Below are positions 7,107-21,241 of a stretch of DNA of 64,000 bases, piece after piece. A program made the position numbers and the translations under genes. The stretch lies in the NCBI GenBank assembly GCA_005954745.1, contig CP040678.1, positions 2,046,001 through 2,110,000 of the forward strand, in the 5' to 3' direction. The number at the start of each line of letters is the position of its first letter. Positions within the stretch are counted from its first letter, which is position 1. The notes below the pieces were generated by a model. That model saw nothing but the letters and a program-made list of their open reading frames with translations. It was not told where the DNA came from and made no database searches. The DNA comes from Halostella pelagica. GTDB lineage: Archaea > Halobacteriota > Halobacteria > Halobacteriales > Natronoarchaeaceae.

Positions 7107-7933
7107 GAGACGAAGAAGAAGCGACCGACGGGCCGCCGGACCCGCAACTCCACCCCGAACAGAGTCCCGGGTTCGACGAGGAGCCCGAAGGACTGGAAGA
7201 CATCGAGGTCGACCGCGACGTGACGATCGGCGAGGCGTCACCGGAGGAACTCGCGGCCAGTGACACCGAACCCGTCGAAGACGATGCCAGGGGCGACCTG
7301 CTCGCGGCGCTCGCCGGAGATGATGTCATCGAGCGTCGTCGCGCTGCGCTCGAACTCGCGGAGCGAACGTACGACGACCGCACGGTCCGCGCACTGAGCA
7401 AGGCTGCGACGACCGACGACGACGCCGAAGTACGGCAGTTCGCCGTCGAGGCGCTGGCGAAACTCGGCGGGGAAGTGGCCGCCGAGACGGCGCTCGCGCT
7501 GACCGACGACCCAGAGCCGTGGGTCCGCGCGGAGGCCGTCGTCGCCTTGGACCGACTCGACCGAGCCGAACACGAGGACCCCATCGAGTCCGCGCTGGAC
7601 GACGGGCATCACGCCGTCCGCCGGAACGCCGCGGTGTCCCTGTTCAAACACCGTGGCGAGGGCGCGCTCCCCGTGCTCGTCGAGGCGGCCGACGACCCGA
7701 GCGAACGGGTCCGAGAGTGGGCCGCGCATCTGCTCGGCGGTATCGACGACGAGCGGGCGCACGAGACACTGGACCGACTGGCCGACGACGACAGCAGCAT
7801 CGTCCGCGAGACCGCCGTGCGTGCGCGGGAGGTCGACGCCGGCAGCTTCCGCCGGCAGTTCAGCGGCACCCTCGACGAATCGGACCGCACGCTCCCGGGA
7901 GAAGACGACCTCAACCGAACGCCGAACCTCTGA
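7103..7933 (+). CDS. HEAT-repeat protein in the nar cluster
   Basis: 276 residues from GTG 7103, overlapping the previous stop (GTGA) and preceded by GGGGGTGA ending at 7096. After an acidic ~60-residue leader come about five tandem helical repeats of the PBS-lyase/HEAT type (for example RALSKAATTDDDAEVRQFAV, then ALALTDDPEPWVRAEAVVAL and ALDDGHHAVRRNAAVSLF). Such repeats are protein-protein interaction scaffolds. There is no signal peptide or catalytic site. Lying between a membrane protein and an Mrp-type ATPase in the nar run, it could be an assembly scaffold for the reductase or its Fe-S clusters; this is inferred from context. The repeat assignment itself is clear. Confidence 0.8.
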   Translation: MRDEEEATDGPPDPQLHPEQSPGFDEEPEGLEDIEVDRDVTIGEASPEELAASDTEPVEDDARGDLLAALAGDDVIERRRAALELAERTYDDRTVRALSKAATTDDDAEVRQFAVEALAKLGGEVAAETALALTDDPEPWVRAEAVVALDRLDRAEHEDPIESALDDGHHAVRRNAAVSLFKHRGEGALPVLVEAADDPSERVREWAAHLLGGIDDERAHETLDRLADDDSSIVRETAVRAREVDAGSFRRQFSGTLDESDRTLPGEDDLNRTPNL

Positions 7934-7935
7934 CC

Positions 7936-9279
7936 ATGACTGACCACTCACACCCGACGACCGACGCCGACCAAACCGCGTCCGACGATACGGCCGCGGC
8001 TGCGGACGAACGCACCGACACTGTCGACTCCGATGCCAACAGTCTCGAAGACCGGGTCGAATCCGCTTTGCGTGCCGTCCGCGACCCCGACGCCGACGTG
8101 ACCGTCTTCGAGGCGGGACTTGTGGAGTCGATACGGATCGAGGGGGCCGACGTGACCATCGAAGCCGCCGTCGCCGAGTTCGACGAGGAGAACGCGACGA
8201 ACGTGATGGGCGCGATGTTGCGCGCGGTTCGCGACGTTCCCGGCGTCGATAGTACCCACGTCGAACCGGTCGCCCCGTCGGCAGGTGACAGGAACCTCGG
8301 CGTCGCCGGGTTCGATACGGTGATCGCCGTCGCCAGCGCGAAAGGGGGCGTCGGTAAATCGACCGTCTCGACCGGTCTCGCTTGCGCGCTCGCGGCCGGC
8401 CGGCCGACGGGACTGTTCGACGCCGACATCCACGGCCCGAACGTCCCGTCGCTCCTCGACGTGTCCGGCCCCGTCCGCTCGGACGACGAGGGCCACCCCC
8501 TGCCCGTCGACGCGTCCACTCCCGACGCGGAACTCGACGTAATGAGCGTCGGCCTGATGGAGGACGGAGCCCCGCTCGCCTGGCGCGGTGCGATGGCCCA
8601 CGACGCGCTGACGGAACTGTTCGAGGACACGGCGTGGCGCGCCGAGGACACGCTCGTCATCGACCTGCCACCGGGCACCGGCGACATCGTCCTCACCACG
8701 CTTCAGGAGGTTCCGGTCGACGGCGTCGTCGTCGTGTCGACTCCGTTCCCGGCGAGCCTCGACGACACCGCTCGGAGCATCGAACTGTTCCGGGACAACG
8801 ACGTGCCGGTCCTCGGAGCAGTCATCAACATGGGCGGGTTCACCTGTCCGTCCTGCGGTGACGAACACGACCTGTTTCCGGGAAGTTCGCCAGCCGACAC
8901 GCTGTCCGCGCCGGTCCTCGCCGAAATCCCGTTCTCGACTGACCTCCAAGAGACCCCCGTCCCCGGCGCTACACCGACGGAGATGGGCCGTCTCGCCGAC
9001 GCCGTGGCCGACGCGGCGGCGACCGCGTGGGACCTCGACGTACCTGACGACGCGGTCGATATTCGCGGCGACCCCCCGGAGAAACGGCGCGAACGCGTCG
9101 CTGAACGGTTCGAATCGCTAGACAGCGGGGCGACGTTTACGCTCGTCAGTGACAGAGACCCGTCGCCCGTCAGAGGGTACCTTGCTGAGGTCGTTGACCG
9201 CGATCCGGCCGCTATCGACTCGTTCGAGGTTGACCGACGGACTCCGGACGATTGGGTCCTCACGGCCGTCCGCCCGTAA
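7936..9279 (+). CDS. Mrp/ApbC (Nbp35-type) Fe-S cluster carrier ATPase with N-terminal MIP18 (DUF59) and C-terminal DUF2249-like domain
   Basis: 447 residues. After a disordered acidic leader, a MIP18/DUF59 domain spans about residues 36-112. The deviant Walker A (SAKGGVGKST, about 134-143) begins the P-loop domain. The CPSC pair Cys304/Cys307 is the conserved site at which ApbC/Nbp35 proteins hold a transferable 4Fe-4S cluster. The last ~75 residues (from PPEKRRERVAERFESL to the end, including TLVSDRDPSPVRGYL) look like a DUF2249 domain. The fusion is unusual; ordinary haloarchaeal Mrp proteins end earlier. It starts two bases after the HEAT-repeat gene. I infer that it matures Fe-S clusters for the many-cluster NarGH complex. 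Confidence 0.88.
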   Translation: MTDHSHPTTDADQTASDDTAAAADERTDTVDSDANSLEDRVESALRAVRDPDADVTVFEAGLVESIRIEGADVTIEAAVAEFDEENATNVMGAMLRAVRDVPGVDSTHVEPVAPSAGDRNLGVAGFDTVIAVASAKGGVGKSTVSTGLACALAAGRPTGLFDADIHGPNVPSLLDVSGPVRSDDEGHPLPVDASTPDAELDVMSVGLMEDGAPLAWRGAMAHDALTELFEDTAWRAEDTLVIDLPPGTGDIVLTTLQEVPVDGVVVVSTPFPASLDDTARSIELFRDNDVPVLGAVINMGGFTCPSCGDEHDLFPGSSPADTLSAPVLAEIPFSTDLQETPVPGATPTEMGRLADAVADAAATAWDLDVPDDAVDIRGDPPEKRRERVAERFESLDSGATFTLVSDRDPSPVRGYLAEVVDRDPAAIDSFEVDRRTPDDWVLTAVRP

Positions 9280-9293
9280 CCGAATCGTCGAGC

Positions 9294-9794
9294 ATGACCC
9301 GGAACGTTCCTGACCCGCGAACGGGTTCCGAGCGAGATACTGGTCGCGACGGCGGCGCGACCGTCGATATCATCGGCAAGAAGTGGTTAGAACTGACTCG
9401 CGACGACCTTGGCGCGCTCCCGACCGTCGAACGCGAATGTTCGGTCGTCTGTGCGTCCGGCGACCGAACCGTAGCGACGTGGACAGGCGTTCCCGTTCGG
9501 GACCTTCTCGCGATCGCTGGCGCTCCGCCGTCGACGACGCATCTCCACCTGAGTAGCGCCGACAATTACCACGTCTGTGTCAGGATCGCCGCCGCATTCG
9601 ACGCGCTGGTCGCCGTCACTCGCGACGGAGCGGACCTGGCAAACGGGAACTGCGGTACGCGGTTCGTCGGGACACAGATCGACGGAAAACAGTCGATTAA
9701 AGCGGTCGCACGGATCGAACCAGTTTCGATCGAACCTGGCAATGACCCGGCGGAACAGGTGATGCGACCTGTGACCGATCGGGAGAACGGATGA
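9294..9794 (+). CDS. Small sulfite-oxidase-type molybdopterin-domain protein
   Basis: 166 residues from ATG 9294, 14 bases behind the Mrp gene. The fold signature is that of the oxidoreductase molybdopterin-binding domain: a beta strand ending in Cys, then VATWTGVPVRDLLAIAG, a HLHLSSADNYHVCVRI strand, LVAVTRDGADLANGNCGTRF, and an IDGKQSIKAVARIEPV ending. It is a minimal single-domain version without a signal peptide or dimerisation domain. Whether it binds molybdopterin is uncertain because the residue context around the first Cys is diverged. Its place at the end of the nar run suggests a molybdenum-cofactor or reductase-maturation role, by inference. Its stop overlaps a further ATG (ATGA). 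Confidence 0.75.
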   Translation: MTRNVPDPRTGSERDTGRDGGATVDIIGKKWLELTRDDLGALPTVERECSVVCASGDRTVATWTGVPVRDLLAIAGAPPSTTHLHLSSADNYHVCVRIAAAFDALVAVTRDGADLANGNCGTRFVGTQIDGKQSIKAVARIEPVSIEPGNDPAEQVMRPVTDRENG

Positions 9795-9904
9795 CCGCTC
9801 TGGTCGCCACCGTCGTCTCCGCCACCGGTGAGACCGACCGCTTTACGACAGTTCGACTGCGAGGCAACGACCGGCAAGGATCGTCAGAGCCGACCTCTCT
9901 ATGA
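9791..9904 (+). CDS. Short ORF of 37 codons coupled to the molybdopterin-domain gene
   Basis: ATG 9791 overlaps the previous stop in an ATGA, like all the other gene junctions in this run, and the frame begins with MTALVATVVSATGETDRFTT before stopping at 9902-9904. It may be a real micro-protein, the surviving start of a gene lost when DNA was rearranged next to the tRNA-Val integration site, or chance. Nothing in the 37 residues identifies a family. The rest of the interval up to attL at 10006 shows no coding frame that I can support. Confidence 0.25.
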   Translation: MTALVATVVSATGETDRFTTVRLRGNDRQGSSEPTSL

Positions 9905-10005
9905 GTGTCGTTGGACTGGCACCAGGATTGAACGGCGACACACCAGCATCTGGTGAATCGTTCCGTGCTTCGACGGAGAACGTTCTCGCACCGCTCGTCG
10001 TTGCA

Positions 10006-10044
10006 AGGAATCAGAAATGGGTTGGGGCGGATTCGAACCGCCGG
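10006..10044. repeat. attL: direct repeat copy of the tRNA-Val 3' end
   Basis: 39 bases identical to 19544-19582, beginning AGGAATCAGAAATGGGTTGG and running through the T-arm sequence (GGATTCGAACC on this strand). The five bases GTTGC before it also match on both sides, with one mismatch between. No anticodon arm or 5' half follows, so this is a remnant and not a tRNA gene. Confidence 0.92.
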
Positions 10045-10092
10045 AGGGCGGCCCCGCCGCCCTCCGAGGTTCGCGTCGGAGCGACGCGAACC
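10043..10092. repeat. Two perfect hairpins directly abutting attL
   Basis: The first inverted repeat is GGAGGGCGG/CCGCCCTCC (10043-10051 and 10057-10065, 5-base loop). The second is GGTTCGCGTCG/CGACGCGAACC (10068-10078 and 10082-10092, 3-base loop). After them, GAACCGCCGACCTGC (10088-10102) repeats the GAACCGCCG of attL and resembles the continuation of the intact tRNA (GAACCGCCGGCCTGC). The hairpins could be recombinase arm sites, a terminator pair, or a small insertion into a formerly longer tRNA copy. Confidence 0.7.
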
Positions 10093-10175
10093 GCCGACCT
10101 GCAATAGCAATCTGTGTAGACTCTCGCCACTTTCCGGGCGACCTCGTCTCGCTGCCGCACGATTCCGTGATCCAA

Positions 10176-11183
10176 ATGTCGCCGGAACCACTCACACCAA
10201 CCGACGCAGTCGACCAATACCTCGCGTCACGCCAAGCCGACGCCGCACAGTCCACGATCCAAAATCATCGGTACCGCCTCAAGCAGTTCCTCCGCTGGGC
10301 CGACCAAACGGGGTTGGACGACATGACCGAAATGTCGGGGCGGAAAGCGGAGCAGTACAAGAATTGGCGGCTCACCTCCGGCGAGGTCAATACTGTCACC
10401 CTCGAACAACAACTCCGAACCTTCCGGGTCTTCATCCGCTGGTGCGAATCCAACGACGCCGTCGAATCAGGTGTCGCCGAAAAGATCCTCGTTCCTAAGG
10501 TGGCCGAGTCCGAGAAAGTCCGCGACGACTACATCGACTATGACACTGCCGAGACGATCATCGACTATCTCATGCAGTTCCAGTATGCGACTCTCTCTCA
10601 CGTCGTCTTTCATCTCCTCTGGCACACTGGAATGCGCCGCGGTACGTTGCGCGCTCTCGATAAAGAGGACTGGTACCCCGGCGACTCCTACCTACGCGTT
10701 CGGCATCGAGACGAAACACCGCTTAAACTCGGCGACAATGGCGAACGCAATATCTCGATCTCGGACGAACGGCTAACGACGGTTCTCTCCGACTACGTTG
10801 CACACACCCGCCACGACGTAATGGACGACCACGGACGAGAACCACTCATCACCACGCCGTACGGCCGTCCAGCAAAGACCACTCTCCAAAGCCACGTCTA
10901 CCGTGTCACCCGGCCCTGTTACTACGCCAACGAGTGTCCGCACGACCGTGACCCGGATAAATGCGAAGCGACCGAGCACCCTTGGTACTCGAAATGCCCG
11001 TCGTCGGTGTCACCCCATCCAGTACGGCGAGGCGCGATCACTGCACACCTGAACCGTGATGTCCCAATGGAAATTGCCTCCGAACGGATGAACGTCTCCG
11101 TTGACACACTCGAACTCCACTACGACGCGCGTTCCTTGGAGGAGAAACGCCAAAATCGCAAACAGTACCTCGATAACCTCTGA
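10176..11183 (+). CDS. Tyrosine recombinase (integrase)
   Basis: 335 residues from ATG 10176; the frame stays open upstream through attL, but that part reads the tRNA remnant. An N-terminal SAM-like core-binding domain (about residues 10-110, with STIQNHRYRLKQFLRWAD) precedes the catalytic domain. Visible catalytic residues are Arg154 in HTGMRRGTLRAL, His281-x-x-Arg284 in SPHPVRRG, and nucleophile Tyr316 in LELHYDAR. Between them, cysteines 248, 254, 263 and 274 form a probable zinc-binding insert, common in haloarchaeal integrases. It catalyses site-specific insertion and excision at the tRNA-Val repeat. It lies 132 bases from attL, pointing inward. The gene is not split by integration, unlike SSV-type integrases. 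Confidence 0.93.
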   Translation: MSPEPLTPTDAVDQYLASRQADAAQSTIQNHRYRLKQFLRWADQTGLDDMTEMSGRKAEQYKNWRLTSGEVNTVTLEQQLRTFRVFIRWCESNDAVESGVAEKILVPKVAESEKVRDDYIDYDTAETIIDYLMQFQYATLSHVVFHLLWHTGMRRGTLRALDKEDWYPGDSYLRVRHRDETPLKLGDNGERNISISDERLTTVLSDYVAHTRHDVMDDHGREPLITTPYGRPAKTTLQSHVYRVTRPCYYANECPHDRDPDKCEATEHPWYSKCPSSVSPHPVRRGAITAHLNRDVPMEIASERMNVSVDTLELHYDARSLEEKRQNRKQYLDNL

Positions 11184-11364
11184 TTTACTTTCTTACGTTT
11201 CCGTGAATCTCGTATGGAAATCATCTAACCGTAAAAGATTCTTCACCCACGGGGACACAATCCACTACTGATGTCGTAATCACTCTTTGTCGTTCCCACG
11301 AACACGCGGTGAAGTAGACAAACCGCGAGAGACCACGGCCGGGGGTCCTGAAGCAGGATCGACG

Positions 11365-12333
11365 TTACAGTTCACTACGGAGCATCGATGTGAGATAGTG
11401 ACCCATCCGGATCTGTTTCCATGCATTCGGATTGCGTGTGGACATACCGCCTGTAGACAGAAGGTCAGCATCGCGACAGAAATCACAGTGTTGGGTCTGC
11501 CACTCATTCCAGTCCGTCAGGTCATCCGATGCCCCTTCGTATGTTGACCCATCGAATTCTCTGACAACCGACTGACTGGGATGATAATGGCGGATGATTA
11601 CTGTATCCCCTTGGTATCCGTTTCCGGGATACCGTACATTGATCGCAAAGTCACCAAACCCGTCCATGCCGAACTCCTCGGCAACGTAGGGGGTGCGGTT
11701 TGTACCATCTCCATCAAACGGGTTAAACACGTTCAACACTCCCAGTTGATTATCCGAAAACGTTCTCGACAGAAATCGCAAATTTTCACGAAGACCGTCG
11801 CTATAACCGGTATCCGGAATGTCAAACAACACCTGATCCGTCGGTCGGAGGGACTCTGCCAACGTGGAAATTGATTCTCGCTGGGAATCAGTAAGCGGCC
11901 CGGTCAATCGGATCATCAACCGATGTACAACTGTACGAAAGTAGTCCCGTAACGCTTGCTGCTGGATGTGGTGGATATCATAGTCCACCGGCGTTTCAAT
12001 GCGCCCGGAAACAACCGGTCGGTCAATACAGTCCGCATTCGCTTGGTAAAACCCAACCCGCCCATCGTACTCTGTTACCGCTGATTCCACAGCGTTACCA
12101 AACGAGGTATCACGAGCCATCTGATAGACGGGGAGATCTACGAGTACCCCGTTACTCGCGTCCACAAAGGGGTCGAGATCATTGAGGTCGGTATCACCGC
12201 CGATCTCGATTATTGGTTCTAGGTCAATAACGCGGTCATTGGTGTGCTCAAAGTGAGTCAATCCGCCAAATGATTGGACGACATCCCGTTCATTTTGCTT
12301 GTTACGGAGGATCGGATGGTATATTTGGGGCAT
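11365..12333 (-). CDS. Beta-protein family (T4 beta-like, PF14350-type) protein
   Basis: 322 residues. The start MPQIYHPILRNKQNERDVV and the following VIDLEPIIEIGG fit the N-terminal signature of the beta-protein family (Y-P-I-L-x-x-K-x-x-E ... l-x-P-i-i-E-i), named after a phage T4 protein. The middle has repeated strand-helix units (LVDLPVY, FYQANAD, LRPTDQVLFDIPDTG) suggesting a TIM-barrel-like fold. A CDFC pair lies near the C-terminus. Family members of unknown biochemical function often lie in mobile elements and defence loci. Here it is the distal gene of the minus-strand cargo, separated from the restriction-modification gene by 163 A/T-rich bases with a hairpin, so it probably has its own promoter. 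I infer a defence or counter-defence role. Confidence 0.7.
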   Translation of the reverse strand: MPQIYHPILRNKQNERDVVQSFGGLTHFEHTNDRVIDLEPIIEIGGDTDLNDLDPFVDASNGVLVDLPVYQMARDTSFGNAVESAVTEYDGRVGFYQANADCIDRPVVSGRIETPVDYDIHHIQQQALRDYFRTVVHRLMIRLTGPLTDSQRESISTLAESLRPTDQVLFDIPDTGYSDGLRENLRFLSRTFSDNQLGVLNVFNPFDGDGTNRTPYVAEEFGMDGFGDFAINVRYPGNGYQGDTVIIRHYHPSQSVVREFDGSTYEGASDDLTDWNEWQTQHCDFCRDADLLSTGGMSTRNPNAWKQIRMGHYLTSMLRSEL

Positions 12334-12435
12334 TATTGGCAGTTCCCCTGATGTTTCGCAATTGGGGATGGGAAAAATGACAACAAGTTATCGGAAATAA
12401 CTTTCGGCGAGTTTAATTAGATATTATTATTGAAT

Positions 12436-12458
12436 GGGGGAACAATGTTTGTTCCTCC
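12436..12458 (-). terminator. Hairpin behind the type IIG gene
   Basis: GGGGGAACAA/TTGTTCCTCC (12436-12445 and 12449-12458, one mismatch, 3-base loop) lies 39 bases beyond the stop of the restriction-modification gene. In the direction of its transcription it is followed by ATTCAATAATAATATC. A weaker CCCC-GGGG hairpin lies at 12467-12480. It could end that transcript, or act as an operator for the beta-family gene downstream. Confidence 0.5.
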
Positions 12459-12496
12459 CATCCTGTCCCCGCACGTGGGGTGAGAAATTTTAATGG

Positions 12497-15400
12497 TCAA
12501 AACACGTCGAGGTATTCCTCCACAACCTCGCGCTCATCGGCTGTGAGGTCAAACAGGTCGTACACGGCATCATCGATCTCGGCCTCCAGCGCCTCGATGT
12601 CGATGGACTCCACCGAAGCCCGGTCATCCTCCACCCGGCGCAGGAGCGTCCGCACGCCGTCGTCAGTCCGAGGGATGGGAATAGTCATCACCTCACCGCT
12701 CTTGACGTTACGACCGTCGACAGCAGCGTGTACGTACTGCGCTCGGTCCCTCCGCGCGTCGCGGTCGTCGGAGTACATTGCCGGGTCACTGATCGTGTCC
12801 GACCGTCCCGCCTGAACGGTAAATTCGCCATCCACGTCACCCTGTACCTCGGCAGACACAGGATACCGACGCGTCTGCCACTCGTACCGGATGGTATCCA
12901 GTTCCCCGTCGAATTCGCCGAGGTACGCTTCCGGGAATCGATCAATCTTGTTCTGGGTATCAAGAGCGGTTAGTATCGGGTGGACATTTTGTTCCAATTC
13001 CTGTCCGATGGATCCACTTTTCAAATCAGCATAGGGTAGTTGAGTGAGATACCGAGATTGGTACCTGTATTTCCCTCCCAAGAGCATCGGAGCAATATGC
13101 TTCAAGTAATAGTCGGACACTTTCGAATTTACCAAGCAAGCAACACGATCCGTCTCGGATTGGAGATTGTCCTCTAGATAGATACCATAAGGTGTCTTGA
13201 AGTACCACGCTCCAGTTTCATCAATCATGAACCGTGCATTGCTCGCCATGTCCGCATTGATGAGTTTAGGACGTCGGAATTTCTCCAAGTTTTGAGGACG
13301 TCCGAACTCCCACCAGACATCACTATTCTCCCAACGGCCACCTTCTCTGCCCCGAAGCGTGTCCTCGTGTTGTTTGAAGAAATCCCATGTTTTCGGGTAG
13401 TTTTCCTTCATCTCATTTTCCTTATAAAGGTGCGGTTCGAACTCTCCGTTTTCCTCTCTTTCGAGACGATAGGGGAAAATCACGTGCTGGCCGGCCCAAT
13501 CACCACGCCAACGCTGAACGTCAATCCCCTGTAGCCACGGACAAAGCAGGTCCGTTTCAATCTCATACTCCTGTGATTCACCCAGTGGAACGACGCGTAC
13601 GGTCCCACCTTCATCCTCAGGTTCGATTCGGTCTGCATCTTGGGGGATTACCAAATAGACGTTATTTGCACTTGTTTGAGTCCCTGATGATATCGATTCT
13701 GTCACGTCCCCCAATTTTGCCTTGCTTTCATCACTTAACTTATTGAATACTTTGAGTTCCTCGGGCGGCATCAACGACCAAAACTGTTCGTCCAACTCGG
13801 CTTGGGGGAAGTCAAATACGTCAATGAACTCGTCGCTGTATCCGGGATCGTTCCGGTGTTCCCGAACGGTAGTTACGACTTCCTCGTCGAGTTTGTTTTG
13901 GCTGTACTCGCTGATATTGGACTTGACCCGAACGGAGCGAATGACATTCTCTTGTCGTACCTCGTCGTCCGGTTCGTCCCTGGCAAACAGGATCACGGGG
14001 AGGTTTGCGGCGTCCTCAAACACGCCGGAATCGCGGAAGTCATACACTTCTTCGATGGCGGCTTCCTCCAGAAGCACTCGGCGTATTCCCTCTCCATAAT
14101 ATGTCAATAAGAATTGGTTTGAGGTGATATAGCCCAGTTTCCCAGTTTCCTCGTTCAGAAGTTCGAGCCCCCGTTCATAGAATGTACAATAGATGTCGTA
14201 GTTCCCCGTCGTCGAGTCGTACAGTCGGTCAAGGTATTCCTTTTGCGAGTCCGGGAGGTGTTGGACGCGGACGTACGGCGGGTTCCCGACGACGTAGTCG
14301 TACTCCATGTAGTTCTTGACGACCAGCGCCAGCACGGTGTCCTCGAATATCTTGAACAGGCGGCCGTCGTTGTGCTCCTCCTGGAGGTACCGGACGTTCT
14401 CCAGCATGTCGTCGACGTACGGCTCGAAGAACTCCTCGACGCCGCTGTACTCCTGCCGCGTGTAGTGGTTGACACGATCCTCCAGCCCGCTCTGATACGT
14501 CCAGTCGAAGTCGTCGCCGAACTCCTCGGCGAGTTCCATGTGCGCTTTGACCGTGTCGAGCACCCCCTGAAGGGCGGCGAAATACTCGCCGAAGTTGCCC
14601 ACGCCGGTCTCCAACTGGATCGTGTCGAACAGGGGCATCCGGATCCGGCGGACTAGGAACCCGTCCTCGGTCTCGGGGACCTCGTCCTCGTCGACCTCGA
14701 TCGGCAAGGGGACGGGGATCCGAACGTCCTGCTCGTCCTCGGTCATCGCATCGAACGTCATCTGTCGCGTCCCGTCATCGCCGAGGTCCGCGCCGGTGAG
14801 TTCCCGCTCGTTGCGGAGCGTATCCGTCCGGTAGATGGGGAGCCGGCGGAGCGTGAACTGGGGGTCTGTCTCTTTCGCCTTCCGGTAGGCGGGCAGGATC
14901 GCGACGACGAAGCGGATCTGTGCCATCAGGACGGCGAACGGGTGGATGTCGAGGCCGACGATCCGCGGTCGGGTACAGAGGTCCTGAAGGTGGTCCTGCC
15001 AGTCCGGGTCGTCGTGGTAGTTCTCCACGTCGTCGATGTATCGCTCGACGGCTTCGACGAGAAACGTCCCGGACCCACACGACGGGTCGATGAGGCGTTC
15101 GTTCGACACGCCGCGGTCGTAGTCGACGCCGTCCATGATGTAGTCGATCACCGGCTGGGGGGTGTAGAACTCGCCGAGTGCCTTCCGGGTCTCGGGGTCG
15201 AAGTACCGCTGGTAGAGGTCGCCGAGCAGGTCGCCCTCCACGTCCTCGAAGTCGAACCGGAGGACGTTGAAGAACACCTCGGCGACGGCCCGGCTGAATC
15301 GATCCCGAGTGGGGGCGCTGATCCGCTCTACGTCGCCGGTCCCCTTCGCGACGGACTCGAACTGGCTCGCACCGGTGTCGTGTCCCCGTGCCAGTTGTTC

Positions 15401-16405
15401 GGCGTAGCCGTCGGTCCACCAGACGAAGATGTCATCTTGGAACAGCCCCTCGACGAGTTGGTCCTGCATGTCGTCGATGAGATTGTCAGCGGCGACCGGG
15501 AACGCGTCGAGATTAATGGTGTCCCCGAATCCTTGGAGCCCGCGGAAGTAGTCGTCCATCCCGCCGTAGCCCGTCCCGGCGAAGAAGTCGTGGTCCTCGG
15601 TGGCCTTCGCCAGCAGGAGTCGGGCGAGCAACGCGTGGCCGCTTTCGAGACAGAACATGAAGTCCCTGAGCGACTGATTACCGTCGATGAACGGCTCCCA
15701 CGAGGACGGCACGTCGTCGGGCTCACTGGCGTACGTGGCCTCCCAGAAGTCGTATGCGCCTTTCACGAACTTCGCTTCTTGTTCGTCGCGGAGTTCGTGG
15801 AGGAGGTCCATCATCCCCGTGACGAGGTCGGCGAACGGGCTGTTGTCTTCCAGTCGGAATGTATCGAAGAAGTGTTCCTGTCCGAGTTCGGCCTGCTTGT
15901 CGAGTGGGATCGGTTCGAGATCCGCCAGGAACTGGTTCACGTCGTCGGGGTCGGTGAGGTCGAAATCCCGCTTTTGGAGGGCGCTAACGAGGTCACGGGC
16001 GTGGCTTTCGGTGGCCGACGCAGTGGCAACCACCATGACCGGCGAGTTGGTTCCCTGCTGGTAGAGCCGGATCTGCTCGCCGTTCGTGAGGACACCGTAC
16101 TCTGCCCGGAGGTGGTCCATGTAGTGGAACAGTTGGGACTCATGGGGGCCGAGGTCGCGGCCGGTGGTTTTGAACTCGTAGACGGCGGTGACGGCCTCGT
16201 TCGTGTCGAGCGTAATGTAGTCGGGGCGTCGGTCGTCAGGGAGCGTAAACTCGCTCCGGATGTCGGTGCCCGTTCCCTCGTAATCGAGTGCGTCGTAGAA
16301 TCCCTGTTCGAGAAACAGGTTCTCCACATCCCGTTCACTCATGTCATCGGTGGTGCGGTCCGCGATTGCACGAATTGAATCGTAGAGGGCGACGGCATCG
16401 GGCAT
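12497..16405 (-). CDS. Type IIG restriction-modification enzyme (PD-(D/E)XK nuclease + N6-adenine methylase + specificity domain)
   Basis: A single 1302-residue polypeptide. The N-terminal ~170 residues resemble a type I HsdR-like nuclease with Asp62 in RRPDYITLD and the Glu78-x-Lys80 pair in VYEFKTT. A helical spacer leads to the gamma-class methylase: LGEFYTPQPVIDYIM (motif X, about 408), DPSCGSGTFLVEA (SAM motif I, about 437) and VVGNPPYVRV (catalytic NPPY, about 705). The region beyond about 850 carries target-recognition-like features and ends in a coiled, acidic tail. Such enzymes both methylate adenine and cut unmodified DNA, protecting their host or the element. No separate restriction or specificity gene is nearby. 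BREX PglX is the main alternative, but the nuclease domain and absence of other brx genes argue against it. A TATA-like box lies ~25 bases upstream. Confidence 0.88.
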   Translation of the reverse strand: MPDAVALYDSIRAIADRTTDDMSERDVENLFLEQGFYDALDYEGTGTDIRSEFTLPDDRRPDYITLDTNEAVTAVYEFKTTGRDLGPHESQLFHYMDHLRAEYGVLTNGEQIRLYQQGTNSPVMVVATASATESHARDLVSALQKRDFDLTDPDDVNQFLADLEPIPLDKQAELGQEHFFDTFRLEDNSPFADLVTGMMDLLHELRDEQEAKFVKGAYDFWEATYASEPDDVPSSWEPFIDGNQSLRDFMFCLESGHALLARLLLAKATEDHDFFAGTGYGGMDDYFRGLQGFGDTINLDAFPVAADNLIDDMQDQLVEGLFQDDIFVWWTDGYAEQLARGHDTGASQFESVAKGTGDVERISAPTRDRFSRAVAEVFFNVLRFDFEDVEGDLLGDLYQRYFDPETRKALGEFYTPQPVIDYIMDGVDYDRGVSNERLIDPSCGSGTFLVEAVERYIDDVENYHDDPDWQDHLQDLCTRPRIVGLDIHPFAVLMAQIRFVVAILPAYRKAKETDPQFTLRRLPIYRTDTLRNERELTGADLGDDGTRQMTFDAMTEDEQDVRIPVPLPIEVDEDEVPETEDGFLVRRIRMPLFDTIQLETGVGNFGEYFAALQGVLDTVKAHMELAEEFGDDFDWTYQSGLEDRVNHYTRQEYSGVEEFFEPYVDDMLENVRYLQEEHNDGRLFKIFEDTVLALVVKNYMEYDYVVGNPPYVRVQHLPDSQKEYLDRLYDSTTGNYDIYCTFYERGLELLNEETGKLGYITSNQFLLTYYGEGIRRVLLEEAAIEEVYDFRDSGVFEDAANLPVILFARDEPDDEVRQENVIRSVRVKSNISEYSQNKLDEEVVTTVREHRNDPGYSDEFIDVFDFPQAELDEQFWSLMPPEELKVFNKLSDESKAKLGDVTESISSGTQTSANNVYLVIPQDADRIEPEDEGGTVRVVPLGESQEYEIETDLLCPWLQGIDVQRWRGDWAGQHVIFPYRLEREENGEFEPHLYKENEMKENYPKTWDFFKQHEDTLRGREGGRWENSDVWWEFGRPQNLEKFRRPKLINADMASNARFMIDETGAWYFKTPYGIYLEDNLQSETDRVACLVNSKVSDYYLKHIAPMLLGGKYRYQSRYLTQLPYADLKSGSIGQELEQNVHPILTALDTQNKIDRFPEAYLGEFDGELDTIRYEWQTRRYPVSAEVQGDVDGEFTVQAGRSDTISDPAMYSDDRDARRDRAQYVHAAVDGRNVKSGEVMTIPIPRTDDGVRTLLRRVEDDRASVESIDIEALEAEIDDAVYDLFDLTADEREVVEEYLDVF

Positions 16406-16429
16406 AGTCCCCGACTTGTCCGACGAGAT

Positions 16430-16440
16430 GATAAAAGTGA
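16430..16440 (-). promoter_or_regulatory. TATA-like box of the type IIG gene
   Basis: On the minus strand CTTTTATCAT lies about 25-35 bases before the ATG at 16405, the spacing of a haloarchaeal leaderless promoter. It lies between the long dyad at 16468-16504 and the gene. Confidence 0.5.
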
Positions 16441-16467
16441 TGACTGTCTACGGAGTCACCGGGCCCC

Positions 16468-16504
16468 CGTGGTGCGAAGATTCTTAAAGAAATTTCACAC
16501 CACG
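16468..16504. promoter_or_regulatory. 37-bp imperfect palindrome upstream of the type IIG gene
   Basis: Left arm CGTGGTGCGAAGATTCTT and right arm AAGAAATTTCACACCACG around a central A; 15 of 18 positions pair. It sits between the stop of the primase-polymerase gene (16544) and the TATA-like box of the type IIG gene, about 28 bases upstream of that box. It is longer than a simple terminator and has no T-run, so an operator for a dimeric repressor is the more attractive reading. The sequence GGTGCGAA recurs in the gene-free region near attR. Confidence 0.55.
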
Positions 16505-16543
16505 TGGACTCGAAAACCCTCGGTAGTTGATAATAGTCCGTTG

Positions 16544-17515
16544 TCAAATATCGGCGTATTCCCCATAGTCCCCCTCAAAGATGTCATTCTGAATCCGTTC
16601 CGCTGAATCAAGTTCCCATTCGAGCCAGGTAGATTGACCACGCGGGTCATCCCATTTGGGCCGTGGACGGTCCGAATCCCAGATCACCTGTTCGACAAGA
16701 TCCCGATCCCCTTTGCACCAGAAGAAGCAGTGAATAAAAAAGGCAGCATCGGACTCACTTTTTGATTTGTGGAGGGTTCTTCCTTCGTATAGATCTCGAA
16801 ACTCACGCTTACCGTAATCTTCCGCTGTTCGGACTACTTGACGGGAAGAGACATTAGTGCTGTCGAACGAGTTAGGTGAAGAAACAGATTCAGTACGGTT
16901 GCATCGCGGGTCATTGTACTCTTTCTGTAAGGTTTGAAATTCGTCACCGGATTTGGTGATCTGTTCTGGTAGTCCGGTAACACGCTCCCCGGTTGTCGCG
17001 AAGTACTGGTTTTTATCGTAGAACTCGATTCCTAAATTAGTGTCCTTCTGCTTATGTGATGGATCTAGCCCATTTGGAGCACGTCCAATGATGTGGAGAC
17101 CTGTTCCGCTTTGGGAAACCTCTGTGTATGAATTCATGGTGGCTGCGATATCACGAGCAGGTTCCGAGATGTTTCCCTCTGCACTGACACAATCATCAAG
17201 ATCGATGCCAACGTATGGATCGTCAGGCGTGAAGACGAAACCGACACCATCCAATGCTTTGTCGTCTGGTAAACTACGATTAGTCACTTCCACGAACTCT
17301 TGTGCAGTTTCGTAGTCCGCCCACTGTTTCTGTGATGCTGTTCCAGTCGTCACGAGTTGTTTCCCGGTTGGACTCCAGTGCGGTGCCTTCGGGCATTTCT
17401 GATCCCTCTCGGCACTCGAATCCCATTCTATTCGATAGCACAGCCATTGATTCTGTCGCTTCAGTTCCTCTGGGACCGAATTCGACGAAATCTCGCTTAT
17501 CTTTTGTTTATCCAT
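16544..17515 (-). CDS. Primase-polymerase of the archaeo-eukaryotic primase superfamily (phage NrS-1 polymerase-like)
   Basis: 323 residues. The PrimPol catalytic core is visible: a VPEELKRQNQWLCYRIEW start, Asp105-x-Asp107 in YVGIDLDDCV, and SGTGLHIIGR with His141, the strand-motif order of AEP primases. G-IEFYDKNQYFATTGERV follows. The C-terminal ~80 residues (SESDAAFFIHCFFWCKGD ... RPKWD) match the helical PrimPol-C domain. It would synthesise primers and/or DNA for element replication. No helicase domain is fused; the ATPase encoded just upstream may supply it. An A-rich TATA-like stretch (ATCATAAAAAAAAA on the minus strand) lies within ~25 bases of the start, suggesting its own promoter. 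Confidence 0.82.
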   Translation of the reverse strand: MDKQKISEISSNSVPEELKRQNQWLCYRIEWDSSAERDQKCPKAPHWSPTGKQLVTTGTASQKQWADYETAQEFVEVTNRSLPDDKALDGVGFVFTPDDPYVGIDLDDCVSAEGNISEPARDIAATMNSYTEVSQSGTGLHIIGRAPNGLDPSHKQKDTNLGIEFYDKNQYFATTGERVTGLPEQITKSGDEFQTLQKEYNDPRCNRTESVSSPNSFDSTNVSSRQVVRTAEDYGKREFRDLYEGRTLHKSKSESDAAFFIHCFFWCKGDRDLVEQVIWDSDRPRPKWDDPRGQSTWLEWELDSAERIQNDIFEGDYGEYADI

Positions 17516-17670
17516 ATCTCTGTGGTGGTTTTTTTTTATGATAGATCCCGATATCTAAATCCGGGGAGGGTAGACGAGGTCAGAGTTTGTATGGTGAAAC
17601 TACCCAGTTTCTGATATAGAAAACAACCCTATGTGAATTTATTTAGTATATTAAACTCATGTTATAAATA

Positions 17671-18966
17671 TTACGTGAATCTCGGGAATTCGATCTCTGG
17701 AGGCCAAGCCAAGTCATCATCTAACTCTAATTTCTTTGTTCCCCGACCGTCTTCCTCTTCAATTGTTCCGAGTCCGATTCCTTCCAATAACTCCATCCGA
17801 TCGAGTATCGTCGGTTTACTCTCACTAACCCCATGACTCTCGAAGTCACTCGCAGTGAGAGCATCGTTAGTTTCTGGATCCAATAGTATCTGGACATATC
17901 GACGGCGTTTTTTGGGCATTGTACTCAGTGTGACACGAGCGGGAACCTGAATATCAGTCATCTGCACCTCGGTCCGACCCTCCAGAAGTGCCCGTCCATG
18001 CGCGAGATCTACAAGAGTTTGAGCAATACGCCAAACACCCTCTGGTTGGTCATCCTCGCTTGGTGTACGGGCGTGTTTCACTATGTCAGACAATGTAGCG
18101 ATCGAACTCAGTGCCTCTTCGGGTGGTTGTGTCTTCTCGACACTTCCATAACCTCCAAACTGCTCCCATCGTTGATCCAGAAGATCGTGGACAGCGTCAG
18201 AACACCGTTGCTTCTCCGCTTCATAGGATGTCCCCTCGCGGAGTTTCTGGACTACATCATCCTGAGTGGTAGTGTCTGGAATTTGATGTAGGACAATGCG
18301 GTTTCCAGTATGCCCCATCACATCCCAAACACGATGATCCAACGGGACAGTAGCACCCAAAATATTAAATCGGAAATCCCCAGTATATCCGCGCCGACCA
18401 TGAGCACCGGTGTCGCGACTGTATCCATCTCCATCTAGTACTCTAACAAGAGTTGACATCCTGTCCCGTATTCTGGATCTGTCACCGGAGAACCAATTTG
18501 CCATGTCTTTGCTCATGAGCGTCTGGTGGCGAACTTTCTTTAGGAGATCGACATCCTCTAGTTCCGATTCGCTAAGAGACGCATCGTGAGATACGAAAGA
18601 CGCAGGGGTGAACTCATCGGATCGGTAGACCGTGCTGTGGCAAGCAAGGAGATCCAGTACAGTCGACTTACCGGTGCCCGAGGGCGCAGTAAGAACAAGA
18701 CACCGGGGTTCCGTATCTTTCAACAAAAGTGTCATATGGGTGGCAAGTGCGGCCTCCGTTGCTTTCCAGGATGCCGCCCCGAAATCATCCCGGACTCGAT
18801 TTTCGACCGTGCGGAAGTGATCCGTTCCTGACTTACCTTGACTCACTCCACCTAGTTGGTCGAGTTGCTTCTGACGAATCCGGTTTGCTTCCTCTTCTCC
18901 CACGTCTTGCTCTAAAGACGGTCCCTGTTGGAATTCGATATCGTCGCCGTTACCACGCTCACTCAT
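17671..18966 (-). CDS. P-loop ATPase with C-terminal winged-helix-like domain, probable element replication helicase/initiator
   Basis: 431 residues. After an acidic leader comes Walker A APSGTGKST (about residues 94-102). The conserved block TLMSKDMANWFSGD, then GYSRDTGAHGRRGYTGDFRF and NILGATVPLDHRVWDVMG, resembles the ATPases of phage and plasmid primase-helicase systems, in which SKD/KD and the later G-A-T-x-x-x-D act like Walker B and sensor elements. The C-terminus (TASDFESHGVSESKPTILDRMELLEGIGLG) looks like a winged helix for DNA binding. It precedes the primase-polymerase gene by 155 bases. I infer a helicase or loader for element replication; no biochemical assignment is certain. Confidence 0.65.
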   Translation of the reverse strand: MSERGNGDDIEFQQGPSLEQDVGEEEANRIRQKQLDQLGGVSQGKSGTDHFRTVENRVRDDFGAASWKATEAALATHMTLLLKDTEPRCLVLTAPSGTGKSTVLDLLACHSTVYRSDEFTPASFVSHDASLSESELEDVDLLKKVRHQTLMSKDMANWFSGDRSRIRDRMSTLVRVLDGDGYSRDTGAHGRRGYTGDFRFNILGATVPLDHRVWDVMGHTGNRIVLHQIPDTTTQDDVVQKLREGTSYEAEKQRCSDAVHDLLDQRWEQFGGYGSVEKTQPPEEALSSIATLSDIVKHARTPSEDDQPEGVWRIAQTLVDLAHGRALLEGRTEVQMTDIQVPARVTLSTMPKKRRRYVQILLDPETNDALTASDFESHGVSESKPTILDRMELLEGIGLGTIEEEDGRGTKKLELDDDLAWPPEIEFPRFT

Positions 18967-19120
18967 TATCCATACCTCCCAACCGTGGAGTCGTGGATTG
19001 ACTGCATTGCATACCCGTAGAGGTGGAACAGTATTCAGCAGGACAACGGCATACGTCGTAATAGTCCGAAGCCGTTGTCGTCGCTTCAGTACGCTCCCGT
19101 TGGAACCTGTGTTTCGTCAT
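18959..19120 (-). CDS. Small cysteine-containing protein overlapping the ATPase gene
   Basis: 53 residues from the ATG at 19120, starting MTKHRFQRERTEATTTASDY and containing Cys-Arg-Cys and two later cysteines that could form a small zinc site. Its TGA overlaps the start of the ATPase gene by 8 bases, which supports translation coupling. The frame also extends upstream to 19324 without a stop, but that part lacks coding character. A TATATA stretch at 19190-19197 lies ~70 bases before the ATG. Function unknown; small cysteine proteins at this place in haloarchaeal elements often act as regulators. Confidence 0.5.
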   Translation of the reverse strand: MTKHRFQRERTEATTTASDYYDVCRCPAEYCSTSTGMQCSQSTTPRLGGMDNE

Positions 19121-19543
19121 CGCGTCACCTGTTCGTAGCGGAGGGAGACGTAAAGCGTTTTCGGTAGAGTTATTAGTAATGCGTGCGGGGTACATATATA
19201 CCTTACTATCGCGCCAGTGGGCCCCGGTGCGAAATCCCCCTCCGGCGTGGCCTCTCGCGGTATTCCTCCCAACCAGTAACTCGGTAGCCCAGTGGGGCGT
19301 TGGTGGTACGACAGGAAGCGTCAACGGCCGAGTGGTCTAGTGGGGCCCACTGATCACGTGACGCGAGGTGGTACGGAGTCGGGGCCGAGATGGATCGGCG
19401 AATGATTTAGGGAAGTCGGCGTTCTCCTTTCGGATGGAATCGCCATTCGGCAGCGAGGCGGAGTTGGTTGCCACATCGATTGGGGCAGACGGTCAAGAGG
19501 GAGTTTAAATACACACCTCTGCCGGGTGTTCCTTCGAGTTGCG
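19121..19543. other. Gene-free region of the element, candidate origin and promoter region
   Basis: About 420 bases without a supportable gene. It contains three related motifs: CAGTGGGCCCC (19215-19225), CCAGTGGGGC (19289-19298) and the perfect palindrome AGTGGGGCCCACT (19339-19351). GTGGTACG occurs twice (19303-19310 and 19368-19375). A TATATA box (19190-19197) faces the minus-strand operon. Repeats next to the replication genes of an element are what an origin with initiator-binding sites would look like; the function is inferred. Confidence 0.45.
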
Positions 19544-19582
19544 AGGAATCAGAAATGGGTTGGGGCGGATTCGAACCGCCGG
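19544..19582. repeat. attR: direct repeat at the 3' end of tRNA-Val
   Basis: 39 bases identical to attL. They cover the 3' acceptor strand and T-arm of the tRNA (19556-19582) and 12 bases beyond the tRNA end. Recombination here restores the tRNA gene, which is the usual strategy of tRNA-targeting integrases. Confidence 0.92.
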
Positions 19583-19630
19583 CCTGCTCCGTGTGAAGGA
19601 GCCGTCATAACCTGGCTAGACCACCAACCC
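19556..19630 (-). tRNA. tRNA-Val (anticodon CAC)
   Basis: 75 bases on the minus strand fold as a tRNA. The acceptor stem GGGTTGG pairs with CCAACCC, with discriminator A. The anticodon stem GCTCC/GGAGC holds the loop TTCACAC, giving anticodon CAC. The T-arm is GGCGG-TTCGAAT-CCGCC. There is no intron and CCA is not encoded. It reads GUG valine codons. Its 3' end is the integration target of the adjoining element. Confidence 0.95.
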
Positions 19631-19676
19631 GCAAGAAAGCGTACCCGCGGGCCGGTGAAAAACGTTCCGGAACCGA

Positions 19677-19931
19677 TCAGTTCGGGCGTTGTCCGCGGAT
19701 ACGTCGCCGCGCCTTTGCGAGGGCGTCTTTCGCCTCTCCTTCAGCACGGTCCTCGATAGCTTCGAGTTCTTCGCGGACGTTGTTGAGGCGACTCGGTTCG
19801 GGTTCTTGCTCACTACCGGTCAACTCCCGGAAGCGCTCCTCGACGGGTTCGAGTTCCTCCGTAACGCCTTTCTTAGCGTGTTCACCGGCTCGCTTGATGT
19901 AGTACCGTGCATCTTCGAAGTGCTTGTTCAT
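19677..19931 (-). CDS. Small conserved haloarchaeal coiled-coil protein
   Basis: 84 residues, MNKHFEDARYYIKRAGEHAK at the start, followed by alternating acidic and basic heptad-like helices ending RRRIRGQRPN. It is highly charged, without membrane segments or cysteines. Proteins of this kind are common single genes in haloarchaea (I believe the family is DUF7553, stated from memory) and have no known function. It lies 46 bases beyond the 5' end of tRNA-Val, on the same strand. Confidence 0.75.
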   Translation of the reverse strand: MNKHFEDARYYIKRAGEHAKKGVTEELEPVEERFRELTGSEQEPEPSRLNNVREELEAIEDRAEGEAKDALAKARRRIRGQRPN

Positions 19932-20037
19932 ACCTATCTGTTGTCTTCGAAAGGATATAACCTTTGTGGAGGGACAGAATTCACAGTCGACATTTCTTCG
20001 CAGAGTATGAGTCCGCGACTGACACTGACATCAGCTT

Positions 20038-20086
20038 TTAGGCTGGCCGAAATCAGTGGTTTTATGTATTTCTTAGGCGTGCCTAA
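20038..20086. promoter_or_regulatory. Pair of DtxR-like operator boxes flanking a TATA-like element, without an obvious gene
   Basis: TTAGGCTGGCCGAA (20038-20051, near-palindromic) and the perfect palindrome TTAGGCGTGCCTAA (20073-20086) are centred 35 bases apart, with TTTATGTATT between them (20061-20070). TTAGGC-n2-GCCTAA is the pattern bound by DtxR/SirR iron- or manganese-dependent repressors. The whole 362-base interval 19932-20293 has no gene I can support, and the next gene begins 207 bases on. It may be the promoter of a lost gene or of a small RNA. Confidence 0.55.
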
Positions 20087-20293
20087 AACCGTGCGGGGCG
20101 GCGAACCGTCCGAGTATGTCACTGGTCATGCCGCCTTGACGATTAGCTACCGCCGCAGTCCGGGCACCATTGCCGTCCCGCCGACTCTGTAAGGGAACGT
20201 AACCGTGGGCATCGGTACCGACCCAGCTGATCCGTCTTTTCGTATCGCCGGTTCACAAACAGTTTACCCGCGGACCGTCTTACCGAGCGTGTG

Positions 20294-21241
20294 ATGTTCA
20301 AGCGGCTTTCGATCCCGACGCCGTTTCAGGTCGGTCCCGTCAACGCCTACATTTCGGGACGGACCATAGTCGACCCCGGCCCGGACAGCGAGGAGTCCTG
20401 GTCGACGATGCTCGACGAACTGGAGAAACGCGACCTCTCGCCCGCGGACATCGAACAGATACTCGTGACGCATCCGCACCCGGACCACTTCGGGTTAGCG
20501 AGACGGTTTCGCGACGACGGAGCGAGGGTGCTCGCGAGTCCCGCAACGTCCCGGATCATCGAGAACTTCGAGGGGCGTCTGGCGTACGAACAGTCGTTTT
20601 TCGTCGACTGCTTCGAGCGCCACGGAATGGCCCGTTCGACGGCCGAAACCGTGACCGAACTCCCAGAAGTGTATCTGGAGTACTCGCCGTCGTGTGAAAC
20701 CGACCGACTACTGGAGGAGGGCGAGAAACTCACCGTCGCAGGCGAGACGGTTCGGGTACGCGACGCCGCGGGGCACGCGCCGGGCGAACTGGTGTTCGAG
20801 TACGAGCACGACGGCGACGAGGAGGCTATCGTCGGCGACCAGATACTCCCCGATATCACGCCGAACCCGCTCTTGCAACCCCCGGCGGAAGAGGGGGACC
20901 CGCGTCCACGAGTCCTGCCGGCGTTCAACGACTCTCTCGACCGACTTCGCGGCCGGGAGTACGACCGCGTGCTCCCCGGCCACCGGGAGGTGATCGACCG
21001 CCCATCGGAGCGAATCGGCGAGATACGCGAGTCCCACGATGAACGCACCGAGAACGTCCTCGAACTCGTCGACGGCAAGACAACGGCGATGGACGTGATG
21101 GAGGGTCTGTTCGGCGACCTGCCGCTGACCGAGTACTTCCCGGGGATGAGCGAGGCGGTCGGCCACCTCGACGTGCTTGAACGTCGCAGCGAAGTACAGC
21201 GATCCGAACGCGGCGGTGTCGTCGTGTACGAACGAACATGA
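20294..21241 (+). CDS. Metallo-beta-lactamase fold hydrolase
   Basis: 315 residues from ATG 20294 (a GTG lies three bases earlier). The zinc-binding motif THPHPDHFG (His60, His62, Asp64, His65) follows the first strand pair (VNAYISGRTIVDPGP). Later metal ligands are suggested by DAAGHAPGELVF, DQILPDI and VLPGHREVI. A helical C-terminal domain (ALVD-like helix with ERRSEVQRSERGGVVVYER) resembles the winged-helix tail of LACTB2-like MBL proteins, many of which hydrolyse thioesters or RNA. There is no signal peptide. Its stop overlaps the start of the adenine-deaminase-like gene by 4 bases, so the two are probably co-expressed. The substrate cannot be named. Confidence 0.85.
   Translation: MFKRLSIPTPFQVGPVNAYISGRTIVDPGPDSEESWSTMLDELEKRDLSPADIEQILVTHPHPDHFGLARRFRDDGARVLASPATSRIIENFEGRLAYEQSFFVDCFERHGMARSTAETVTELPEVYLEYSPSCETDRLLEEGEKLTVAGETVRVRDAAGHAPGELVFEYEHDGDEEAIVGDQILPDITPNPLLQPPAEEGDPRPRVLPAFNDSLDRLRGREYDRVLPGHREVIDRPSERIGEIRESHDERTENVLELVDGKTTAMDVMEGLFGDLPLTEYFPGMSEAVGHLDVLERRSEVQRSERGGVVVYERT

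What the first reader, a model, noticed from the sequence alone, without database searches (positions are those of the whole stretch)
10006..19582. 9.5-kb element in tRNA-Val(CAC) with replication genes and restriction cargo
Seen: identical 39-bp repeats, an intact tRNA at one end, an integrase beside the other, and six further intervals on the opposite strand. Known: tyrosine integrases of archaeal elements use tRNA 3' ends. Inferred: the combination of PrimPol, ATPase, type IIG enzyme and beta protein without structural or transfer genes is a compact defence-carrying replicon, possibly a satellite, and is the most likely new system of the window.
Basis: partly seen in the sequence, partly recalled or inferred. 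Interest (0 to 1): 0.8.

Follow-up and report, generated by a model that had tools for sequence, protein, structure and literature searches.

The report
tRNA-integrated haloarchaeal element carrying restriction cassette
A 9.5-kb mobile DNA element has inserted itself into a tRNA gene of a salt-loving archaeon, bringing its own integrase, two likely replication genes and a restriction enzyme; it is one of a family of small, modular elements that spread such defence genes between haloarchaea.

Summary
A 45-bp direct repeat (44/45; 39 bp exact) bounds 10000-19582; one copy lies in an intact tRNA-Val(CAC), the other beside an intact tyrosine integrase. Inside, on the other strand, are a 53-aa ORF, an AAA+-like ATPase, a PrimPol, a type IIG restriction-methylase and a beta-type protein. 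In all nine genomes of the family this tRNA neighbourhood is conserved; three relatives carry other integrase-bearing inserts there and four show none, so it is a hotspot. The ATPase has no named family and no plasmid or phage relative found, and occurs in 17/391 haloarchaeal genomes. In six relatives it sits in a 5.6-12.7-kb tRNA-bounded element with a related integrase; in three of these it is fused to a PrimPol whose catalytic motifs are lost. The IIG enzyme is travelling cargo: 13 of 29 homologous loci are tRNA-bounded islands versus 0 of 20 control loci, on two unrelated integrase chassis, one shared with tailed haloviruses (HF2), which carry the same enzyme at 65% identity. This is a haloarchaeal 'cryptic integrated element' of an apparently undescribed lineage, not demonstrably a satellite and not a new defence mechanism. 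Excision and replication are untested.

The parts
10000..10044 (.). Distal attachment site: copy of the tRNA-Val 3' end plus 18 nt of downstream sequence
   Evidence: 44/45 identical to 19538-19582; att plus outer flank is 91% identical over 67 nt to the distal att and flank of the element in relative G001
10176..11183 (+). Tyrosine integrase, 335 aa, catalytic residues R154, K184, H281, R284, Y316 intact
   Evidence: phrog_1 integrase E 1.7e-25; the residues are invariant in 18 aligned integrases; closest relatives (57-65% identity) include ones at tRNA-Val(CAC) in other genomes
11365..12333 (-). P2, beta-family-like protein, 322 aa; candidate accessory gene of the restriction cassette
   Evidence: 8 of 391 genomes; directly beside an IIG homologue in G268 and G192; PF14350 in 2 of 7 homologues
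12497..16405 (-). Type IIG restriction enzyme-methyltransferase, 1302 aa (nuclease-type N-terminal domain + N6-adenine methylase + TaqI-like specificity domain)
   Evidence: Pfam Eco57I 2.6e-30, N6_Mtase, HSDR_N, TaqI_C; 64.7% identity over the full length to type IIG enzymes of haloviruses HF1/HF2/HCTV/HRTV
16544..17515 (-). PrimPol (NrS-1-like archaeo-eukaryotic primase-polymerase) with helix-bundle domain; motifs DLDD and SGTGLH intact; no helicase domain attached
   Evidence: phrog_13901 6.9e-59, PF22763 NrS-1 HBD 2.3e-12, PDB 7ola 5e-26 and 6a9w 3.9e-17, alignment
17671..18966 (-). AAA+-like ATPase of an unnamed haloarchaeal family, 431 aa; candidate replication initiator/helicase
   Evidence: No Pfam family at its cut-off; 17 of 391 genomes; alignment with Walker A and GATTPL/GNR motifs; fused to PrimPol in L053-L055
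18959..19120 (-). Possible 53-aa cysteine-containing protein, overlapping the ATPase start codon; first gene of the leftward gene row
   Evidence: Read from the sequence; no convincing family match; low confidence
19191..19200 (-). TATA-like sequence tatatatgta, possible promoter of the leftward gene row
   Evidence: Read from the sequence; inference only
19538..19582 (.). tRNA-proximal attachment site
   Evidence: Direct repeat of 10000-10044
19556..19630 (-). Intact tRNA-Val(CAC), the integration target
   Evidence: ARAGORN; conserved with DUF7553, MBL hydrolase and amidohydrolase genes in all nine family genomes

Best explanation
The interval is a site-specifically integrated, non-conjugative mobile element (a haloarchaeal 'cryptic integrated element'). 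Its tyrosine integrase recombines a 45-bp attP with the 3' end of tRNA-Val(CAC); the element's copy restores the tRNA, and the displaced 3' fragment marks the distal end beside the integrase gene (shown by anatomy; recombination itself inferred). When excised, the circle would be replicated by the ATPase and the PrimPol, probably acting as one machine since relatives encode them as one polypeptide (inferred). The type IIG enzyme, with the beta-type protein as a possible partner, is exchangeable cargo that methylates the host genome and cuts unmodified incoming DNA; it would protect the host, compete with other elements and perhaps penalise loss of the element (inferred from family knowledge).
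For: Repeat, tRNA and integrase geometry. Same tRNA with conserved flank genes in nine genomes, other integrase-bearing inserts there in G001 (9.6 kb), G007 (about 21 kb) and G008 (2.3 kb), and no integrase homologue in the 20-kb loci of G002, G003, G005, G006. Integrase relatives of 57-64% identity in elements at tRNA-Val(CAC) elsewhere (L141, L143). Six ATPase relatives in 5.6-12.7-kb elements bounded by tRNA-Phe, -Lys or -Arg 3'-end repeats with the related integrase at the distal end. PrimPol-ATPase fusions in L053-L055. Cargo exchange: GmrSD/HEC-05, type II methylase, Eco57I-like methylase with PLD nuclease, HNH nuclease. IIG homologues in tRNA-bounded islands in 13/29 loci against 0/20 control loci, Fisher p 2.6e-4; a tRNA within the 20-kb locus in 24/29 against 3/20, p 2.8e-6.
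Against: No excised circle, joined attP or empty site with identical flanks was found: the genes left of the element lie on another contig in G001, so the left border cannot be checked by long-range synteny. The AlphaFold model of the ATPase was poor (pLDDT 53.6), so 'helicase/initiator' rests on sequence motifs and on the fusions; hhalign gave no link to a phage primase-helicase. The PrimPol domain of the fused relatives has lost its catalytic motifs and several ATPase elements have no PrimPol, so PrimPol is not essential to the family.
Confidence: 0.8

Rival explanations
1. The element is a former mobile element now fixed as a chromosomal defence island: integrase and replication genes are remnants and only the restriction cassette matters to the host.
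For: Synteny on its left is not conserved. Relatives include remnants such as L068 (1.5 kb) and islands reduced to the IIG gene alone (L153) or the beta gene alone (L136).
Against: All genes are open, the integrase catalytic residues and PrimPol motifs are intact, and the repeats are still 44/45 identical.
Confidence: 0.15
2. The element is a satellite of tailed haloviruses, packaged by a helper such as an HF2-like virus, with the IIG enzyme excluding competitors.
For: The IIG enzyme is shared with HF1/HF2-type viruses. The HF2 genome carries its integrase and IIG gene side by side, and a 9.9-kb island with an HF2-type integrase plus IIG exists (L148). The PrimPol's best solved relative, 7ola, is, from my memory, a primase-helicase of a staphylococcal phage satellite.
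Against: The element's integrase is not HF2-like. No ATPase relative among phage records or found in IMG/VR. No packaging or capsid-interfering gene was recognised. NrS-1-like PrimPols are widespread on haloarchaeal plasmids and in bacterial phages, so PrimPol says nothing about satellites.
Confidence: 0.04
3. The element is a provirus with an unrecognised capsid gene.
For: Elements of similar size with viral genes are known in archaea (ArcVen-P3, 9.5 kb; PMC4158269).
Against: Every ORF over 300 aa except P2 has an enzymatic assignment or motif; P2 and the ATPase have no virus relatives found, and the beta-type P2 sits beside restriction genes in unrelated genomes.
Confidence: 0.01

Closest known systems
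Cryptic integrated elements (CIE) of Thaumarchaeota (Krupovic et al. 2019, PMC6563490)
   Same: Small integrase-bearing elements in archaeal chromosomes, often tRNA-targeted, some with PrimPol and restriction-modification cargo, no virion or conjugation genes
   Different: This element carries an unnamed AAA+-like ATPase in place of the SF3 helicase or MCM described there; PrimPol and ATPase are separate here and fused in relatives; att is 45 bp against a thaumarchaeal median of 17 bp
Primase-helicase plasmid-like integrated elements of archaeal dark-matter islands (Makarova et al. 2014, PMC4158269)
   Same: Small islands built round a primase plus ATPase/helicase
   Different: Those are described around arCOG07809 (primase, superfamily I helicase, HTH, Zn finger); relation to the proteins here was not tested
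Hafunaviridae haloviruses (HF1, HF2, HCTV, HRTV)
   Same: Carry a type IIG enzyme 65% identical over its full length, next to an integrase in HF2
   Different: The element has no recognised virus genes, another integrase and another target tRNA
SNJ2-type integrases and pleolipoviral proviruses of haloarchaea
   Same: Classical (non-splitting) tyrosine integrase acting in haloarchaea, per PMC8371274
   Different: No pleolipoviral gene recognised; membership of the SNJ2 integrase family was not tested

Membership tests
Archaeal cryptic integrated element (integrase-bearing integrated element without virus or conjugation genes) | Direct repeats (att) at both ends, one in a tRNA | tested here: met
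Archaeal cryptic integrated element (integrase-bearing integrated element without virus or conjugation genes) | Intact integrase gene beside an att site | tested here: met
Archaeal cryptic integrated element (integrase-bearing integrated element without virus or conjugation genes) | No virion, packaging or conjugation genes | tested here: met
   none among the recognised proteins; P2 and the 53-aa ORF remain unassigned in function
Archaeal cryptic integrated element (integrase-bearing integrated element without virus or conjugation genes) | Excision and reintegration | not testable with these tools
   needs cells or reads
NrS-1-like PrimPol | Sequence match to a solved NrS-1-type primase and conserved catalytic motifs | tested here: met
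   6a9w E 3.9e-17 and PF22763 2.3e-12; DLDD and SGTGLH motifs
Type IIG restriction enzyme | Nuclease, methylase and specificity domains in one chain, full length | tested here: met
Type IIG restriction enzyme | Cleaves and methylates DNA | not testable with these tools
   no assay
BREX PglX | Score above the curated BREX PglX cut-off and other BREX genes nearby | tested here: not met
   138 bits against a cut-off of 400; no other BREX gene in the element
Beta family protein (PF14350) | Pfam match above gathering score | tested here: inconclusive
   no match for the window protein; 2 of 7 homologues match, best E 0.0035
SF3-type phage primase-helicase ATPase | Profile similarity of the ATPase to the helicase part | tested here: not met
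   hhalign probability 1% against two phage primase-helicases
Phage or virus satellite | Packaging or helper-hijacking genes | tested here: not met
   no such gene recognised
Phage or virus satellite | Mobilisation by a helper virus | not testable with these tools
   needs infection experiments

The most novel reading that the evidence does not exclude
The ATPase marks an undescribed lineage of minimal haloarchaeal integrative replicons (5.6-12.7 kb, several tRNA targets) whose only shared genes are integrase and ATPase, in which a PrimPol was captured, fused and then catalytically lost, and whose defence cassettes also ride on halovirus-type integration modules, some as att-flanked islands without any integrase that depend on integrases supplied in trans by viruses or other elements.
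Probability: 0.3. Interest if true: 0.65.

Novelty: new variant of a known kind. Interest (0 to 1): 0.48.

Why it matters
Restriction systems in haloarchaea are known to be patchily distributed (PMC6471742), and that paper gives no tRNA or integrase context for the pattern. The element and its relatives give a direct vehicle: small tRNA-targeting elements and halovirus-type integration modules carry the same type IIG enzyme into many tRNA sites. The group also offers small candidate replicons, with an uncharacterised ATPase, that could be tested for autonomous replication in haloarchaea.

Tried and rejected
AlphaFold model of the ATPase: too poor to use for fold comparison, so no fold search was run. 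First genome contigs and IMG/VR scans with Walker-A-based patterns were uninformative; a second pattern gave five named genomes and no viral contigs. IMG/VR scans for P2, IIG and integrase found nothing, but for IIG this is clearly a limit of the single-sequence patterns, since haloviruses carry it. ATPase against PDB: only generic P-loop matches. ATPase against phage primase-helicases: no relation. HF2 integrase as source of the window integrase: rejected (E 0.004, 21% over 67 aa). BREX PglX as identity of the IIG gene: rejected. Clean empty site by flank synteny: not obtainable, flanks rearranged. Paper search for beta family proteins in defence: nothing relevant.
Full report
WHAT IS THERE. 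The window lies in a 3.9-Mb haloarchaeal genome. A 45-nt direct repeat, 44/45 identical, occurs at 10000-10044 and 19538-19582 and nowhere else in 9000-21000. The right copy comprises the last 27 nt of an intact tRNA-Val(CAC), 19556-19630 on the minus strand, and 18 nt beyond its 3' end. The left copy is 131 bp from the start of a 335-aa tyrosine integrase (10176-11183, +). On the minus strand, in one row starting at the tRNA end, are a 53-aa ORF (18959-19120), an ATPase (17671-18966), a PrimPol (16544-17515), a type IIG restriction enzyme (12497-16405) and a protein P2 (11365-12333). GC is 54.5% inside and 64.7% in the chromosome to the right.

THE PROTEINS. The integrase matches phrog_1 (1.7e-25); R154, K184, H281, R284 and Y316 are invariant among 18 aligned integrases. 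The PrimPol matches NrS-1-type primases in Pfam, PHROGs and PDB, with DLDD and SGTGLH motifs intact, and has no helicase domain. The 1302-aa enzyme has a nuclease-type domain (HSDR_N), N6-adenine methylase and TaqI-type specificity domains and is 64.7% identical over its whole length to enzymes of HF1/HF2/HCTV/HRTV haloviruses, several annotated as type IIG. It scores far below the BREX PglX cut-off. The ATPase has a Walker A motif but no named family. P2 has no match by itself; two of seven homologues reach PF14350 Beta_protein, best E 0.0035.

THE SITE. In all nine genomes of the family the tRNA-Val(CAC) neighbourhood (DUF7553, MBL hydrolase, amidohydrolase) is kept. At that tRNA, G001 carries a different 9.6-kb insert with a related integrase and a second att copy, G008 a 2.3-kb one, and G007 an insert of about 21 kb with two integrases, a PrimPol-like gene and another type IIG-like enzyme. 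G004 shows a row of four tRNA 3'-fragments about 120 bp apart, which I read as scars. G002, G003, G005 and G006 have no integrase homologue within the 20-kb loci. The distal att of the window plus its outer flank is 91% identical over 67 nt to that of the G001 element, which supports 10000 as a true boundary. However, the genes further left lie on another contig in G001, so an empty site with the same two flanks could not be shown. Among the integrase's nearest relatives, L141 (64%) and L143 (57%) lie in elements of 5.5 and 7.0 kb at tRNA-Val(CAC), the latter with a PrimPol, and L144 (56%) has a tRNA-Val 3' fragment beside it, so target choice appears to be inherited with the integrase.

THE FAMILY OF THE ATPASE. 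The ATPase occurs in 17 of 391 haloarchaeal genomes, in no plasmid of 72,556 and no phage record of 50,697, and was not found in IMG/VR. In six relatives the locus is a small element: L053 7505-15519 (tRNA-Phe), L054 7398-18272 (tRNA-Phe), L055/L140 12.7 kb (tRNA-Phe), L060 8274-15617 (tRNA-Lys), L061 5430-12560 (tRNA-Arg), L062 about 6258-11907 (tRNA-Phe), each with an integrase 43-49% identical to the window's next to the distal att; L068 is a remnant. In L053-L055 PrimPol and ATPase are one protein of about 590-620 aa, but the PrimPol part has lost the DxD and SGTGxH motifs. L060-L062 have no detectable PrimPol. The other ATPase relatives (L056-L059, L063-L067) were not found bracketed by tRNA repeats; the proteins tested near three of them gave no virion family. 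I infer that the ATPase is the constant replication gene and that PrimPol is an auxiliary part which in the window is still intact. Cargo differs: a GmrSD-type HEC-05 protein (L053), a type II methylase (L054), an Eco57I-like methylase plus PLD nuclease (L055), an HNH nuclease (L061).

THE CARGO. IIG homologues occur in 47 of 382 genomes. I fetched 20 kb around 29 of them besides the window. Thirteen are bracketed by a tRNA and a direct repeat of its 3' end, with targets including Ala(CGC), Thr(GGT), Thr(CGT), Glu, Gly, His and Leu, against none of 20 control 20-kb loci from the same genomes (18 placed by random draw, two shifted because the draw overlapped IIG loci) (p 2.6e-4); 24 of 29 against 3 of 20 have any tRNA (p 2.8e-6). 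The count treats loci as independent; L156 and L157 from one genome look like copies of one island. The integrases belong to two unrelated types: the window type (L150, L152, L156, L157, L161, L166) and the HF2 type (L148 at 72%; L155, L168, L170, L172 at 38-39%). L148 is a 9.9-kb island in tRNA-Thr with an HF2-type integrase and an IIG enzyme 83% identical to the window's; HF2 itself has integrase, a tRNA-Thr-like probable attP and the IIG gene in a row. L153 is a 4.3-kb island with IIG alone. P2 lies beside IIG in G268 (same strand, about 100 bp apart) and G192 (convergent), and alone in a 1.7-kb tRNA-Leu island in L136. So IIG, with or without P2, is a travelling cassette.

MECHANISM. Shown: geometry, intact catalytic motifs, hotspot, modular exchange. 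Inferred: excision and integration by the integrase at the 45-bp core; replication of the circle by ATPase and PrimPol; defence and possible post-segregational hold by the IIG enzyme. P2 as partner of IIG is a guess from adjacency in three genomes.

COMPARISON. The element works like, and meets the testable definition of, the cryptic integrated elements described in Thaumarchaeota, which also combine integrase, PrimPol and restriction genes (PMC6563490). It differs in its ATPase, att length and host class. Papers read here on haloarchaeal restriction genes (PMC6471742) and archaeal defence (PMC12988326) contain no mention of tRNA; subscription papers could not be searched. The satellite idea has no positive evidence beyond the shared IIG gene. 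I rate the finding as a new variant of a known kind, of moderate interest, most of it in the family-level pattern rather than in the single element.

Noticed in passing
L148:4546-14480: 9.9-kb island in tRNA-Thr(GGT) with an integrase 72% identical to that of halovirus HF2 and an IIG enzyme 83% identical to the window's, and no long ORF that would suggest virus structural genes.
   Followed up: partly
L153:8186-12544: 4.3-kb tRNA-Leu(TAG)-bounded island holding only the IIG gene and no integrase: possibly moved by integrases in trans.
   Followed up: partly
L136:9117-10862: 1.7-kb tRNA-Leu(TAG)-bounded island holding only a P2 (beta-type) gene.
   Followed up: partly
L053:8855-10627, L054:9387-11252, L055:9494-11260: PrimPol-ATPase fusion proteins whose PrimPol part has lost its catalytic motifs.
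   Followed up: partly
L073:9048-9440: Row of four tRNA-Val 3'-end fragments about 120 bp apart in relative G004, likely scars of repeated integration.
   Followed up: partly
window 1-9794 and L069: The genes left of the element are together in relative G001 but on a different contig from its tRNA-Val(CAC): a synteny break at the element's distal end.
   Followed up: partly
window 10017-10175: The integrase frame stays open upstream into the att repeat (ATG at 10017, antisense of the tRNA); the same happens in L078, but frame length varies among relatives, so probably chance.
   Followed up: partly
L058:3944-4004 and 13798-13858: 61-nt repeat of the 5' and middle part of tRNA-Ser(TGA) flanking an ATPase homologue, suggesting an integrase with a different crossover site.
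   Followed up: no
L156:6805-18275 and L157:1629-13100: Two apparently equal 11.5-kb IIG islands at tRNA-Thr(CGT) on two contigs of one genome; duplication or assembly artefact.
   Followed up: no
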